Notes under the pieces: generated by a model
What the model was told of the DNA's origin: nothing
Databases searched by the model: none
Seen by the model: the letters and a program-made list of their open reading frames with translations, nothing else
Program-made: the position numbers and the translations under genes
Part shown: positions 42,196-51,028 of the stretch, one piece after another
Layout of the letters: each line of letters begins with the position of its first letter
Position numbering within the stretch: the stretch's first letter is position 1
Source of the DNA: Leptodontidium sp. MPI-SDFR-AT-0119
Taxonomy: Eukaryota > Ascomycota > Leotiomycetes > Helotiales > Leptodontidiaceae
Direction: 5' to 3'
Assembly: GCA_020726505.1 (NCBI GenBank)
Contig: JAHLEZ010000020.1
Coordinates: forward strand, 992,001-1,056,000
DNA: 64,000 nucleotides

Positions 42196-44974
42196 TTAGC
42201 CATCTTCAGCACTTTGGATTGATAATACAACATCCTCTTGCTCAGCCTTCCATGCATCTAAAGCTATGCAGGATGAAATGTAATGTGGATGATCAAGTCC
42301 TAAGACACGTTTCCCAAATCGTACACATTCTTCCATAAGTCTTACAGCTTCGGTTTCTTTGCCGTTTCCTTTCCACGTAAACGCTAGGTTGGCCATGCTG
42401 GACAGCGTGTCTGGATGGTCCACTCCGAGCTTCGTCTTGCTCGTCTCCATCACTTGCACCAACAGCTCTTCAGCAGCGTCCCACCGGCCTTGATTCCGGT
42501 ACGTCGACGCTAGGTTGGCCATGCTAGACAGCGTAGAAGGATGGTCGGCGCCGAGTTTCTTCTTGCGAGTCTCCATCACGTGCACCTCCAGCTCTTCAGC
42601 AGCGTCCCACCGGCCTTGGTTCCTGTACGTCGATGCCAGGTTGGCCATGCTCATCAGCGTGGAAGGGTGGTCCACTCCGAGCTTCGTCTTGCTCATCTCC
42701 ATGACTTGCACAAACAGCTCTTCAGCAGCGTCCCACCGGCCTTGATCCAAGAACGTCGCCGCTAGGTTGGCTATGCTGGTCAGCGTGTGTGGATGGTCGG
42801 CGCCGAGTTTCTTCTTGGTCGTCTCCATCACTTGCACAAACAGCTCTTCAGCAGCGTCCCACCGGCCTTGATTCCGGTACGTCGACGCTAGGTTGGCCAT
42901 GCTGATTAGCGTAGAAGGATGGTTGGCGCCGAGTTTCTTCTTGGTCGTCTCCATCACTTGCATCTCCAGCTTTTTAGCATCATCCCACCGGCCTTGGTTC
43001 CTGTACGTCGATGCCAGGTTGGCCATGCTCATCAGCGTGGAAGGGTGGTCCACTCCGAGCTTCGTCTTGCTCGTCTCCATGACTTGCACAAACAGCTTTT
43101 CAGCATCATCCCACCGGCCTTGGTTCCTGTACGTCGATGCCAGGTTGGCCATGCTCGTCAGCGTGGAAGGGTGGTCCGCTCCGAGCTTCGTCTTGCTTGT
43201 CTCCATCACTTGCACAAACAGCTTTTCGGCAGCGTCCCACCGGCCATTCAGGTTATATGCCAAGCCCACCATTCCCATCCCATCTAGAGTATCACTGTGC
43301 TCATCACCGAGAATCTTCTTTCGAACTTTCATTGCGTGAACTGACATGTTCTCCGCCTCTACGCCTTTTCCCATTCTCCATGCGTACCATGCTGCTTTAT
43401 ATAGTACTGAAGCCCAGTCTGTTAAAGAGTCTGATTCCTTTGGCTTCTGTGATGCTGCCGATTGCGCGTGTGGGAAAAGTGCCTGACAACTTTCCCAGTT
43501 CTCAAAGTCTCCCGTCGGAAGCTCTGCGTCAAGATTCTTGAGAAACGCATGTTTCCACTGCTCTTGCTGCTTATTAGCTTTCAGCCACTCTCGCGTGGCT
43601 AGTTGCACTAGCCCATGCATTTCGAAGGTCGTGCCGTCCATACTCATAGAGATGAATGAATAATTTCGTAAGGCCAAGAGATCGTTTTCAAACCCGTCAT
43701 TCACGCTAGACCGTGATCCCCTATCTTCATCGTCATCACTATACTCAACGTCGATATCAGGACGGGTGTCATCGTTCTTCTTTTCCTGGTTGTGCTGCGA
43801 CTGCTCGGCTCGACTTCGAAGTAGAGCCTCGGGGATTCCTTGCCGGTCAAAAAAGCTCATAAGCGACAATAAATCAGCAGCTGTTGGCCGTATTTCACGG
43901 ATGTGCTCGAAAGATATCTGCCATGTAATGATGATGGAGTTTTTCGCCTCCTGATCGCGACGGAGCTGTTCGCCATCGCAATTAAGGAGGCTAGTTTTCT
44001 TAGAATCGCTCTTTCGAAAGTCCTGGAGATATCGTCCAACGGAATAGCGCGGTACCCTTTGGGAGACATATGCAGCAGCCTGAACAATGGCGAGAGGCAT
44101 ATACTCGAGGACCGCAGCGAGCTCTTCGACATCGTCGGCATCGTCATGCCATCCTAGCTTCTTCTCAAAGAGGGCCAGCCCATCTTCCCTACTCATTGGA
44201 TCAACTGTAATGATGTCGCGCGGTTCAACTACCTTCAGAGCAGCGATTTTGGTTCGTGTTGTTATGAGAATCGATCCGTGCGGACACTGCGGCAGGTATG
44301 ATATGAGCGACCGTGTGTTCCCGCTCTCTATGCCGCTTGTTTGCCCATCCTGCCCGGTCCTTCGAGCCTCGACGAGGAAGCTAGCATCATCCACATTATC
44401 AAGTATAAGAACCCACTTCCCCTTCTTATCATCGCGCAGCCAGTCGCGCACGAGCTGGAAGATATCGGCTTGTGGATTCTTTCGTCCAGAGATCTTCACG
44501 CAGTTTGCAATATCTCGAAAGCTCTGCTCAAACCGGGCAGCATTGCTTGCGTGGACCCAGAACACCCATGTCTCCGGCAAGCGGTCTCGAGTTCGATAGG
44601 CGTATTCGATGGCGAGTTGCGACTTGCTTCAAAACAGTCAGCAATCTATATTAACAAAAGCGTTTGCGCTTACCCGACGCCGCCCAAGCCAACGAGCGCG
44701 GTCCGAGATCCTAAGACAGCGCATTTCTGGTGAATCTGATCAAGTATCCCTCGCTCGACGAAGTCTGTGTCGCGACTGAAGGGTATGACGATCGACGGGT
44801 TCAGTGGAGTCTCTGGTCGTTCTGCGGGTGGGGACGTCGTTAGCGCGGGGTCAGCTTGGACCTTTGCGACTTACCAGGAGGGGCATGGTGATGGAACTGA
44901 GTATTGACGAGACCGTTGAATATTCCACCTTGGAGGCCGGAGTTGGCGGGACCAAAAGATATCGCGGATGCCAT
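42196..44974 (-). CDS. NLR (STAND) protein: amyloid-type motif, NB-ARC, TPR repeats
   Basis: Three exons fit by phase: 44974-44875, 44821-44674 and 44626-42196, giving 892 residues. Introns of 53 and 47 bp are confirmed because splicing rebuilds the P-loop VGLGGVGKSQLA. Domains in order: residues 3-27 AISFGPANSGLQGG...NGLVNTQF, a prion-like signalling motif; PFSRDTDFVERG linker; NB-ARC with P-loop (~75-85), WVLILDNVDD Walker B (~153) and ITTRT sensor (~205); a winged-helix region; an acidic insert; then seven near-identical 42-residue TPRs of the GRWDxAExLxVQVMET...SMANLASTYRNQ type between two degenerate ones (about residues 500-870). Such proteins sense non-self or pathogen cues through the repeats and trigger cell death. 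It is transcribed away from the effector at 45156, whose C-terminus carries the same motif. Confidence 0.9.
42365..43250 (-). repeat. 126-bp tandem repeats encoding TPRs
   Basis: Seven 126-bp units, highly similar at DNA level, encode the 42-residue TPRs. The same words (CAGGTTGGCCATGCTCATCA, ACCGGCCTTG) recur each 126 bp. Differences cluster at a few codons (for example residues 9-14 of the unit: LFVQ/LEMQ/LEVH/LLVQ, SKTK/TKKK/RKKK). Confidence 0.9.
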
Positions 44975-45155
44975 TACAGCAGAGGATTTGCGACGAAGTG
45001 GTAGTAGCAGCTGCTTGTCTCGATGTCGTTGGCCATTCTTCAGCCGCAACGACTTGTGGCTACCTCCAATCAGAATACTCGGCGCTTCCAACACCTCAGC
45101 CTCAGCTCAGGTTTAGATCTTCGTTGACCTCTGCTCCTCTTATCAACAAACACAA
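44975..45155. promoter_or_regulatory. Bidirectional promoter of the NLR/effector pair
   Basis: Only 181 bp separate the two start codons, which face away from each other. Both genes must use this interval, which favours coordinated expression. No individual element can be named with confidence. Confidence 0.6.
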
Positions 45156-46040
45156 ATGGCTGATCCTCTCAGCATTGGTGCGAGTGTCGTCAGTATTATT
45201 GTACCGGCCTTGCACGGCACACGACTACTACTGGGAGATCTGCAGCAGCTCAACGATGCACCTAGAACCATCAAACGTCTGACTGATGACGTCCACTCAG
45301 TTCATACAACACTGGAATTGCTCCAAGGAGTAGAAGACGGAGATTGGAAGTCACTTGGCCAAAACGTAGCGGGGCAGTCAAAGGCGACAATCAGCAGCTA
45401 CACGCAAGCTTGCGACCTTTTCAGAGCCGATCTACAGAAGTGGACGAGACACTCAGAAGATGGAAAGCTAACTTGGGTGGACCGAGTAAATGTGGGATTC
45501 TTCAAGAAAGACCAAGCCAAGGCCATGTCAGAGCAGCTTCAAAGCTGTAAGCTTGCCATTAATCTTATCGTTGGTGTTGCAACCTTGTAAGTAGTTCTGG
45601 TTCTGCCTTTTTTGTTACAGGACTGACCTTCCAGCAGGTATAGTTCTGTCCGTAATAGTCATGTCACGGAGGAGATAAAGAAAACGATATCTACAAAACA
45701 GGATGAAGTTAATAATGCCATTGCTACGGCAGATCGACAGCTGGTATTGTTAGAGAACAAGCTGGAAGAGCTGAACCTCAGCAGCGATGATGACAACGCG
45801 ACTGGATCCAGTCAAGGCAAAGCTGAGGTATTGCGACAACTTGAGGAGGAACTAGAAGGGGCGAAAGCGTCGCAGAAGCTACTGAATGAGCTACTGTCCA
45901 AGTCTCAGGAAGAAGCTATTACGAAAGCCGCGGGGAACCAGACCGATTCGATTACAGTGAGCTTCGGTGCTCAGAACTCGGGCTTTCAAGCTGGGAACAT
46001 CAACGGGGGAGTTAGTGGAATAAATTTTGGAGGAAAGTAA
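45156..46040 (+). CDS. HeLo-like-domain effector with C-terminal amyloid-type motif
   Basis: Two exons fit by phase (45156-45586 and 45638-46040; 51-bp intron GTAAGT...CAG), giving 277 residues. The N-terminal ~190 residues are helical and match the fungal HeLo-like N-terminal domain of STAND proteins. They begin MADPLSIGASVVSIIVPALH, where the hydrophobic first helix is the expected membrane-inserting element, and later include GFFKKDQAKAMSEQLQSCK and EEIKKTISTKQ. A coiled coil of about 60 residues follows, then a C-terminal tail ITVSFGAQNSGFQAGN...NGGVSGINFGG. The tail repeats the NLR N-terminal motif (SFG--NSG-Q-G--NG-V). The predicted role is a cell-death execution protein: amyloid seeding by the NLR folds the tail and drives the HeLo-like domain into the membrane. 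No start or frame problem. Confidence 0.85.
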
Positions 46041-48361: not shown

Positions 48362-49291
48362 CTTTGAATCTTGTAAAAAATCGTACTAGAAGAGAATTTA
48401 AATTTTAAGGACCTTTGGACTTTTTAAATAGAGCTGCTCTTAAAGTACAGTATGATAGATAGAGAGCCAAATTTGGTTCATAGCAATTTTGACTCTTTTG
48501 TTCCTAGGGCTAAAACTTTGGATCCTCATATAGTAAAGTATATACACAGTACATGCGGGAGACAAACAAAATTGGCTGACACGGTACCATGTAGGAGCAA
48601 GTAATGGCAAAGAAGCATCGCAGCCAAACCTCGCTCCCAAAGAAGAAGTTGCTTATAGCCTTGCAGTTTGCTTTGAAAAGTCAACGATATACAGCAAAAC
48701 CGGTACCTTGGAGTATAACTGGTAGGGGTTGTACAGCCACAAGCATCTGGAATTGGAGCCCACTTAAAAGAGTTAACTAAAGGAATTAGCGACGCGCAAT
48801 TCGCCTTTTACTGTACGTTAGGGGCGATAGAAATAATGCGAAGGTTATTGATAGTCTTTATATTTCGGCTCAAGAATCAGGACTTCTTGAAACCGACGTC
48901 AGGGAAACGAGCTTGGTAAGCGCAGGGTTGATAAGCCCCCAACACGACCATTCAGCCTCAGGGCCGGTCCGCGCCGCACATCTTTCGATCTAACAAGAAA
49001 TTTTACCATGCTAGCTCAACAGTCACTTCCAGACAATCTTGATGGCTTTTGGGGGCAGGGGACGCCTCCTATTCTGGCTCCCACACCTGCCACAGTGTTC
49101 ACCCACCTCAGCCCCCACGTCTGTGATGACCATCACTTCAATTTGGGGTATGCTCACAGTAAATAGTCCATCCATTATCTGCTCTTCCCTCTCCTTTCAC
49201 AGGGTTCATTCCTTCCCTTTTCTGCCCCATCCGCGCATATTTCACTCCTTCCCTCTCGAATGGTCTCGTCATTCATATCCGCATTCTTGTC
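48362..49291. other. Intergenic, no convincing gene
   Basis: No supportable gene. Contains the promoter of the ferric reductase that starts at 49292; no iron-regulatory GATA-type pair could be singled out with confidence. Confidence 0.4.
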
Positions 49292-51028
49292 ATGGACACC
49301 GTTGAAATATATGCAATCTGCATTGGCAGCATCTTTGCCATATTCTTCGTCCTTACCTTTCGTCCATACATCTGGCAATTTGCAGAATATGTCGTTCTCT
49401 TCCTCTGCAAGGCCCTGACCTATCCCCGGATCCTCGACCGTCACTCATTACTTGGGCCATGGATGCCAGCAGGTCTCATTGTGCAGACAGCATATATCTC
49501 CGCTAATGTCTGCTGCCTCGAGTTTTGGAAGTTGACTGCCACGAAGGTAGGCCTCCGCGCCGCGAATCTGGCCTTGGTCAATATGATGCCGCTCTTCCTT
49601 GGAACTCATCTTAGCTTCCTTGCAGATCGATTTGGTGTCTCCCTGAAGACGTTTCGGATGGTTCATCGATCGACAGGAGTAATGTCGTTCGCCCTTGTGC
49701 TCTGCCACGTCCTTGTCGTGGCCGCTCGTGGAGCTGGGACTTTCTCTTCAAGCGTGCCAGAGAGCCTCTATGGACTGATCGTAATGTTTCTGATCCCCTA
49801 ATAAATCACAATACAAACGACTAACACTCACAGGGTGGTTCATCCTTGTGTTTGCTCCTCCTCCTCTCGATACCTATCGTCCGCCGCCCGTCGTACGAGT
49901 TGTTCCTCCGTATTCATCAAAGTCTGGCTCTACTTGTGATGTACTCCACCTTGCGGCATCTCATGCTCACATCCAAGTTTCCTTGGTTGTTCGTATATAT
50001 TTTTGCTGGTATATGCGCAGCCCTATTCGTCTTTCAACTGGGTACCGCTGTCTTTCGGAACAAGGCCTGGGGCCATTCTTTTTCGCAAGCCTACATCACT
50101 CGCGTTAACGATACCGTCAGGATTCGGATCGTGGCGTCTCGGCCGGTAGAGGTTAAAGCAGGTCAGTACATCAACATTTGGATCCCCTACGTCAGCTGGT
50201 ACATCCTGCAGAGTCATCCCTTTGTAGTGACCAATTGGGTCGAGGGCAAGCAAGGCACTCTGGACCTCTTCATCCAACCACGGAGAGGCTTTACGCGTGA
50301 TCTATTCAGACACGGGACCACCGATGAGCGAGACATCATACCCCGTCTTGTGTTATTCAGCGGACCACACGGCATCAGCATACCAGTCGTGAAGTACGAG
50401 ACCGTTCTCATGGTCGCGACTGGCTTCGGCATTGCTGCGCTATTGTCATACCTCCGCAAACTGATCCATGGCTATCAAACTTGCAAAACTCGCACAAGAC
50501 GAGTTCATTTGGTGTGGCAACTTCAAAGTCTTGGTAGAATCCTTTTTTCAACGCATGATAGGAGCTAACGACCTTAGACATTGGCTTGGCTGGGGAGTCC
50601 CTCTGGAAAGACGCTGTGGACGAAGTTACTCTAGACGACAGTTATGTGAGTAAAGCAGCTTCTCGAACGCTTACCCAACTGAACTTGGTATAGTTCCTCA
50701 GTATCTCGATTTACGTGGATTCTCCGGGTGTGTTCAAAGCGCCCTTTGGCAAGCGTGCAAGTATCTATCCAGGTACGGCGGATATTGAACGGATCCTGCA
50801 AGACGAGGTGACGGGGACCTATATTCAGAAACTGCACGTAGCGCCAGAGGAACGAGGCAAGATACTTGTTATGGGTAAAGACATCCATCCTACTTCATTG
50901 CAGTTAAGTAGATACTGATACCTGTAGTTTCCGGGACCGGCGAGCTCCGAGATCAGCTTCGGGCTCTTGTTCGTCCGCACCTAGATCATGGAGTTCAATT
51001 ACAGGAGCTGGAATTCCAACCGGAGTAA
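49292..51028 (+). CDS. Ferric/metalloreductase, membrane (FRE family), copy 2
   Basis: Five exons fit by phase: 49292-49780, 49834-50533, 50578-50645, 50694-50874 and 50928-51028 (introns 53, 44, 48 and 53 bp), giving 512 residues. Haem-ligand His pairs lie in VHRSTGVMSFALVLCHV and IHQSLALLVMYSTLRHL. FAD-binding HPFVVTNW, NAD(P)H-binding VATGFGIAALLSYL and the C-terminal VSGTGELRDQLRALV...LEFQPE are all present. The order and intron positions parallel copy 1 (34170-35882) but the sequences are clearly diverged, so duplication is not recent. Both start only 15-20 residues before the first transmembrane segment. Plasma-membrane reduction of Fe(III) or Cu(II) is the expected role. Confidence 0.88.

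What the first reader, a model, noticed from the sequence alone, without database searches (positions are those of the whole stretch)
44875..46040. Divergent NLR and HeLo-like effector share one amyloid-type motif
Seen directly: NLR residues 5-22 (SFGPANSGLQGG..NGLV) and the effector C-terminus (SFGAQNSGFQAG..NGGV) match as SFGxxNSGxQxGxxNGxV. The genes are head-to-head with 181 bp between starts. Known for the NWD2/HET-S class: an activated NLR nucleates a short motif that templates the same fold in a HeLo effector, which then perforates membranes. This looks like a complete two-gene programmed-cell-death or allorecognition module, of a motif subtype I cannot name.
Basis: partly seen in the sequence, partly recalled or inferred. 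Interest (0 to 1): 0.9.

Follow-up and report, generated by a model that had tools for sequence, protein, structure and literature searches.

The report
Fungal amyloid death-switch gene pair
Two back-to-back genes of a mould encode a receptor-like protein and a helical partner that carry the same short motif, and they most likely form a cell-suicide switch of an already described type, in which the receptor is predicted to pass an amyloid shape to the partner, which would then attack the cell's own membrane.

Summary
An NB-ARC-TPR receptor (892 aa, minus strand) and a HeLo-like protein (277 aa, plus strand) start 181 bp apart and share SFGxxNSGxQxGxxNGxV at the receptor's N terminus and the effector's C terminus. 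The match beats all 4000 shuffles; motif profiles of 16 receptors and 18 effectors align at 98.5% probability. The effector equals a deposited Leptodontidium protein. In this 77 Mb genome the probes found the motif only at five receptor first exons and three effector ends: three head-to-head pairs keep both (one in variant form), one has lost the effector's motif end, and one receptor is a relic. The motif is a side branch: it misses two printed PP consensus patterns and the Pfam cut-off. Pair-private co-variation was not found. New member of a known kind; amyloid formation and killing are untested here.

The parts
44875..44974 (-). NLR exon 1: codons 1-33 plus one base, i.e. the motif-bearing N terminus
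   Evidence: ATG at 44974, GT donor at 44874; same exon in four other genome copies
44906..44959 (-). NLR copy of the shared motif, SFGPANSGLQGGIFNGLV (residues 6-23)
   Evidence: profile match to effector motif 98.5%
44674..44821 (-). NLR exon 2 (ERPETP... to the P-loop GLGGVG)
   Evidence: intron 1 is 44822-44874, intron 2 is 44627-44673
42196..44626 (-). NLR exon 3: rest of NB-ARC, DUF7779, TPR repeats, stop
44383..44699 (-). NB-ARC match (residues 75-164, split by intron 2)
   Evidence: PF00931 26.3 bits, cut-off 23.5
42381..43245 (-). TPR array: 6.9 copies of a 126-bp (42-aa) unit; six central repeats 75-93% identical in DNA
   Evidence: PF13374 nine stretches
44975..45155 (.). 181-bp intergenic stretch between the two start codons
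   Evidence: 129, 180 and 196 bp in the three other pairs; alignable
45156..45586 (+). Effector exon 1: most of the HeLo-like domain; PF17111 covers residues 2-188 and so runs on into exon 2
   Evidence: PF17111 62.3 bits, cut-off 27.2; identical to NCBI model
45587..45637 (+). Effector intron (GT-AG, 51 bp)
   Evidence: gives exactly the 277-aa deposited protein
45638..46040 (+). Effector exon 2: helical stalk and C-terminal tail, stop included
45960..46013 (+). Effector copy of the shared motif, SFGAQNSGFQAGNINGGV (residues 252-269), inside a predicted disordered tail (242-277)

Best explanation
This is a head-to-head gene pair, an NB-ARC-TPR receptor with a short motif at its N terminus and a HeLo-like protein with the same motif at its C terminus, and it most likely works as a cell-death switch of the PNT1/HELLP kind, in which the receptor is predicted to seed an amyloid fold in the partner, which would then damage the cell's membrane. 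Proposed steps: the TPR array would bind an unknown ligand; the NB-ARC domain would oligomerise; the clustered N-terminal motifs would nucleate a PP-type cross-beta fold; this would template the disordered tail of the effector; the HeLo-like domain would rearrange and expose its N-terminal hydrophobic helix to the membrane. Shown here: the genes, domains, shared motif, its conservation, its restriction in this genome to these loci within the reach of the probes, and the predicted disorder of the tail. Inferred from published Podospora and Chaetomium work: every mechanistic step.
For: Motif match far above chance and by profile. PF17111 in the effector, NB-ARC and TPR in the receptor. Motif columns F253, G254, N257, G259, Q261, G263, G267, F274 are invariant or nearly so in the 44-row alignment. 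Over 111 homologues the motif region (mean majority frequency 0.73) is as conserved as the HeLo-like domain (0.72), above the two linkers (0.49, 0.59) and the other stretches (0.65-0.67). Tail 242-277 has pLDDT under 50. Pfam Ses_B, which PMC8086366 uses as the PP model, matches 13 of 16 receptor exon-1 peptides (one other family matches 2) and 14 of 18 effector tails (no other family), at E up to 1 and mostly under its cut-off. A Podospora appendiculata protein, 36% identical to the effector over 251 columns, passes the cut-off (24.7 against 23.2). Four head-to-head pairs in one genome. Receptor and effector homologues share a contig in 17 further non-redundant cases from 15 named genera plus one unnamed contig, judged by equal contig length or consecutive locus tags. 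Published proof for the same architecture: PNT1(1-31) and HELLP(214-271) form prions, co-localise, and send full-length HELLP to the membrane with cell death (PMC7885112 sections 5 part 1 and 9).
Confidence: 0.85

Rival explanations
1. The shared motif is a non-amyloid docking peptide: the receptor recruits or holds the effector through a one-to-one contact, without templated polymerisation.
For: Short, Gly/Asn-rich, disordered in the model. Natural effectors exist in which the central Gln is Asn, Ala or Val (P0018, P0019, P0036, P0038, P0047, P0079), which an amyloid ladder might not tolerate.
Against: The same architecture forms prions and cross-seeds in Podospora (PMC7885112). The motif is self-similar on both partners, as templating needs, rather than complementary.
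Confidence: 0.08
2. The pair is an allorecognition (heterokaryon incompatibility) locus, with effector alleles that act as natural prions.
For: HET-s is such an exaptation of a receptor/effector pair (PMC7885112 section 14); the TPR array is highly self-similar, as in polymorphic fungal NLRs (PMC4986451 passages).
Against: No allele or strain data here; of the three Podospora systems only NWD2/HET-S is described as exapted (PMC7885112 section 14; PMC7889193 passages).
Confidence: 0.04
3. The pair is a decaying copy of an expanded family and no longer signals.
For: One sister pair (C15) lost the effector's motif end and one receptor (C69) is broken.
Against: In the window all exons are open, splice sites are intact, and both motifs and the P-loop are kept; the effector is 84-88% identical to proteins of Cadophora, Rhexocercosporidium and Calycina.
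Confidence: 0.03

Closest known systems
PNT1/HELLP of Podospora anserina (PP motif, prion [pi])
   Same: Two adjacent genes; NB-ARC-TPR receptor with the motif within its first 31-33 residues; HeLo-like effector of near-equal length (published construct ends at residue 271; here 277) with the motif at its C terminus; within-pair motif identity 48% over 23 columns, published range 32-48%.
   Different: Motif spacing and the residue after Q differ from the printed patterns; here several pairs coexist in one genome; no experiment done. The Podospora anserina sequences were not retrieved, so orthology to HELLP itself was not tested.
PNT1/HELLP/SBP of Chaetomium globosum
   Same: PP motif, NB-ARC-TPR receptor, HeLo-like effector (PMC5485727, PMC7885112 as read).
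   Different: That locus has a third gene, the lipase SBP. Here no motif-bearing end beyond the three HeLo-like ones was found by peptide search, within that search's sensitivity.
NWD2/HET-S and FNT1/HELLF of P. anserina (HRAM motifs)
   Same: Receptor plus pore-forming effector joined by an N-/C-terminal amyloid motif.
   Different: Different motif family (two repeats in the effector, beta-solenoid); NWD2 is NACHT-WD40 (PMC7885112 section 4).
Mammalian RHIM (RIPK1/RIPK3) and MLKL
   Different: RHIM sits on kinases; MLKL is activated by phosphorylation; the receptor motif here has Gly at Q+1.

Membership tests
Fungal NLR/effector amyloid-signalling gene pairs | Adjacent genes: receptor with short N-terminal motif, effector with homologous C-terminal motif | tested here: met
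Fungal NLR/effector amyloid-signalling gene pairs | Receptor has a nucleotide-binding domain and repeats | tested here: met
   PF00931 26.3 bits (cut-off 23.5); PF13374 nine stretches
Fungal NLR/effector amyloid-signalling gene pairs | Effector carries a HeLo or HeLo-like domain | tested here: met
   PF17111 62.3 bits, cut-off 27.2; PF17111 is called HeLo-like in PMC9815663
Fungal NLR/effector amyloid-signalling gene pairs | Motifs form amyloid and cross-seed; effector kills | not testable with these tools
   needs fibril, foci and death assays
PP motif class | Motif centred on a conserved Q with a GxQxG segment (PMC5485727, PMC7885112) | tested here: met
   GxQxG in both window motifs, in 93 of 114 effector tails and 94 of 120 receptor heads
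PP motif class | Most lie at positions 5-9 of the receptor (PMC9815663) | tested here: met
   begins at residue 6
PP motif class | Printed core NxGxQxGxN (PMC9815663) | tested here: not met
   right-hand Asn at Q+5, not Q+4; only 8 of 114 effector tails and 4 of 120 receptor heads match it
PP motif class | 2012 consensus FxGx(x)NxGLQLxGxNxGxL (PMC3321046) | tested here: not met
   0 of 114 and 0 of 120; Asn at Q+5 agrees, QLxG does not
PP motif class | G-hydrophobic-Q-hydrophobic-G (PMC7885112) | tested here: inconclusive
   effector GFQAG passes only if Ala counts as hydrophobic; receptor GLQGG fails
PP motif class | Pfam Ses_B (PF17046) over its curated cut-off | tested here: not met
   window effector tail 15.1 bits, cut-off 23.2; receptor exon no match; homologue P0293 passes with 24.7
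MLKL 4HB / HeLo fold | Effector domain folds as the four-helix executioner bundle | tested here: inconclusive
NWD2/HET-S (HRAM) | NACHT-WD40 receptor | tested here: not met
   NB-ARC and TPR instead; neither NACHT nor WD40 is among the 25 families shown of 26

The most novel reading that the evidence does not exclude
The window motif belongs to a separate, widespread branch of RHIM-like signalling amyloids (NxG-phi-Q-Ala/Gly-G-xx-N-G) in which a small residue replaces the second hydrophobic residue of the core and even the central Gln can be lost on the effector side. In this fungus it would link three receptor/effector pairs that keep both motifs, plus one receptor orphaned from its effector's tail, into one cross-seeding network rather than private pathways.
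Probability: 0.25. Interest if true: 0.5.

Novelty: new member of a known kind. Interest (0 to 1): 0.32.

Why it matters
The natural variants (Gly after Q; Asn, Ala or Val in place of the central Gln; a sister effector without its tail) are ready-made probes of which residues of a PP/RHIM-type core are needed for seeding, and of whether paralogous pairs cross-talk.

Full report
WHAT IS THERE. On the minus strand a three-exon gene starts at 44974 and stops at 42196 (exons 44974-44875, 44821-44674, 44626-42196), coding 892 residues. Pfam finds NB-ARC (26.3 bits, cut-off 23.5), DUF7779 and many TPRs. On the plus strand a two-exon gene starts at 45156 and stops at 46040 (intron 45587-45637), coding 277 residues with PF17111, the HeLo-like domain (62.3 bits, cut-off 27.2). 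181 bp lie between the start codons. The receptor's residues 6-23 read SFGPANSGLQGGIFNGLV and the effector's residues 252-269 read SFGAQNSGFQAGNINGGV.

ORGANISM AND GENE MODELS. The window is C13:992001-1056000 of a 77 Mb, 69-contig assembly. The effector is identical to BKA61DRAFT_636080 of Leptodontidium sp. MPI-SDFR-AT-0119, whose contig length equals that of C13; Leptodontidium is in Helotiales, Leotiomycetes. The deposited effector therefore agrees with the splice sites used here. No identical deposited receptor is among the 120 listed of 1035 hits.

IS THE MATCH MORE THAN CHANCE? The best ungapped score of the two ends is 54; 4000 shuffles average 19.5 and never exceed 40. Profiles of 16 receptor exon-1 peptides and 18 effector tails align over 23 columns with probability 98.5% and E 3.3e-15. 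Of the 120 listed receptor homologues 101 have a loose form of the motif in the first 75 residues, 87 a strict form, 105 at least one; of the 114 listed effectors of at least 255 residues (180 listed in all) 95 have NxGxQ in the last 60 and 74 the strict form. The strict effector pattern occurs 0 times in 25,039 residues outside the tails, and the strict receptor pattern once in 80,347 residues outside the heads. In the alignment of 111 effectors (of 180 listed, kept by length 255-300) the motif region has mean majority frequency 0.73, as the HeLo-like domain (0.72), against 0.49 and 0.59 in the two linkers and 0.65-0.67 in the other stretches. So part of an otherwise more variable, predicted disordered tail is held fixed.

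THE REST OF THE GENOME. A 33-residue receptor probe found five places, an effector-tail probe three, and a composite consensus probe the same eight and nothing else; these are lower bounds because the first look is word-based. They form: the window pair; a second pair 37 kb away on the same contig (C13b, effector 85% identical); a pair on C10; a pair on C15; and a lone receptor relic on C69. The four pairs are all head to head, with 181, 129, 196 and 180 bp between starts. On C15 the homology to the window stops at window position 45836, inside effector exon 2, so the motif end is gone while the receptor's exon 1 is intact. On C69 no effector turned up beside the receptor and its frame is interrupted. 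On C10 the effector has Asn in place of the central Gln (FGDNSSGFNAGIINGG), as do two relatives from other genomes, P0018 and P0019, while their receptors keep Gln. For comparison, PF17111 itself has 45 matches in this genome at E up to 0.001, counted exon by exon, so most HeLo-like stretches here were not found to carry the motif.

LINKED PAIRS ELSEWHERE. By equal contig length or consecutive locus tags, receptor and effector homologues share a contig in many genera; consecutive tags, which show adjacency, are seen in Cadophora (IFR05_014029/014030), Coleophoma (BP6252_09459/09458), Trapelia (MMC30_009216/009217) and Leptodophora (ACEPPN_000486/000485). Equal contig length shows linkage, not adjacency. 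Motifs of 20 non-redundant pairs (three from this genome) share 10.45 of 17 columns, against 10.27 when partners are shuffled (P 0.17): no pair-private code is visible, so paralogous pairs might cross-talk. Some receptor relatives carry a SesA or HET domain at the N terminus and lack the motif there (P0185, P0217, P0236; P0204, P0221), the all-in-one form known from fungal NLRs (PMC3321046 passages).

WHICH KNOWN KIND? Papers were read as follows: PMC7885112 sections 4 (part 1 of 2), 5 (part 1 of 4), 9, 11, 14 and passages; PMC9815663 sections 19, 24 and passages; passages only of PMC5485727, PMC7889193, PMC3321046, PMC12881547, PMC8086366, PMC12261475, PMC12258605, PMC12222747, PMC4986451. 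The PP motif is pseudo-palindromic around a Gln, shares GxQxG with RHIM, and joins an NB-ARC-TPR receptor, PNT1, with a HeLo-like protein, HELLP. In P. anserina HELLP(214-271) and PNT1(1-31) form the [pi] prion, convert each other, and move full-length HELLP to the membrane with cell death. The window pair has the same domains, gene count, near-equal effector length and motif position, and its within-pair identity (48%) is at the top of the published range of 32-48%. PMC8086366 uses Pfam Ses_B as the PP model; Ses_B matches 13 of 16 receptor exon peptides, 14 of 18 tails and 28 of 44 effectors at permissive E-values, and passes its cut-off in a homologous Podospora appendiculata protein (24.7 bits; 36% identity to the window effector over 251 columns).

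WHERE IT DIFFERS. The window motifs do not reach the Ses_B cut-off, and the literal printed patterns fail: the Asn of the right arm is at Q+5, not Q+4, and the receptor has Gly at Q+1. The published shorthands disagree with each other on that spacing (the 2012 consensus has Asn at Q+5 but Gly at Q+3). In the family here Q+1 is mostly Ala (63 of 95 effectors and 84 of 103 receptors that have NxGxQ). I therefore file the pair as a new member of the NLR/HeLo-like amyloid-pair kind that works like PNT1/HELLP, with a motif on a side branch of PP, and do not certify the window motif itself as a PP member.

SENSOR. The TPR array has 6.9 units of 126 bp; the six central ones are 75-93% identical in DNA. 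Self-similar TPR arrays with repeat-number polymorphism are reported for fungal NLRs, including P. anserina Pa_5_8060 (PMC4986451), which PMC7885112 names as PNT1.

VERDICT. Observation confirmed; interpretation right in kind, wrong in the comparison class, unsupported on allorecognition. Shown: genes, domains, shared and conserved motif, multi-copy head-to-head arrangement. Inferred: ligand sensing, amyloid nucleation, templating, membrane damage, death.

Noticed in passing
L036/L017 (G000:C15:84001-88500): A sister pair whose effector stops inside exon 2, after the helical part, so the motif tail is missing while the receptor's motif exon is intact: a possible receptor without its own effector.
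   Followed up: partly
L013/L016 (G000:C10, about 111200-112400): Pair with a variant motif: Asn replaces the central Gln on the effector side only, the same in two other genomes (P0018, P0019).
   Followed up: partly
P0036, P0038, P0047, P0079: Four listed effectors, two of them named Chaetothyriales sp. and one Exophiala, have Ala or Val in place of the central Gln (GFAAA, GFAAG, GLVVG), with Met for the leading Phe.
   Followed up: no
L012/L037 (G000:C69:1371001-1375500): Relic of the receptor, with stops and no effector found, beside an unrelated reading frame.
   Followed up: partly
window 44975-45155: The shared intergenic stretch is alignable across all four pairs, best on the receptor side (75% mean column identity).
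   Followed up: partly
P0185, P0217, P0236, P0204, P0221: Receptor relatives with a SesA or HET domain at the N terminus and no motif there, i.e. the all-in-one architecture.
   Followed up: no
L016 400-1329, minus strand: Two open frames that look like a Tc1/mariner-type DDE transposase (judged by eye) next to the C10 pair.
   Followed up: no
window 49163-50568: Open frames that look like a ferric reductase (judged by eye), not part of the module.
   Followed up: no
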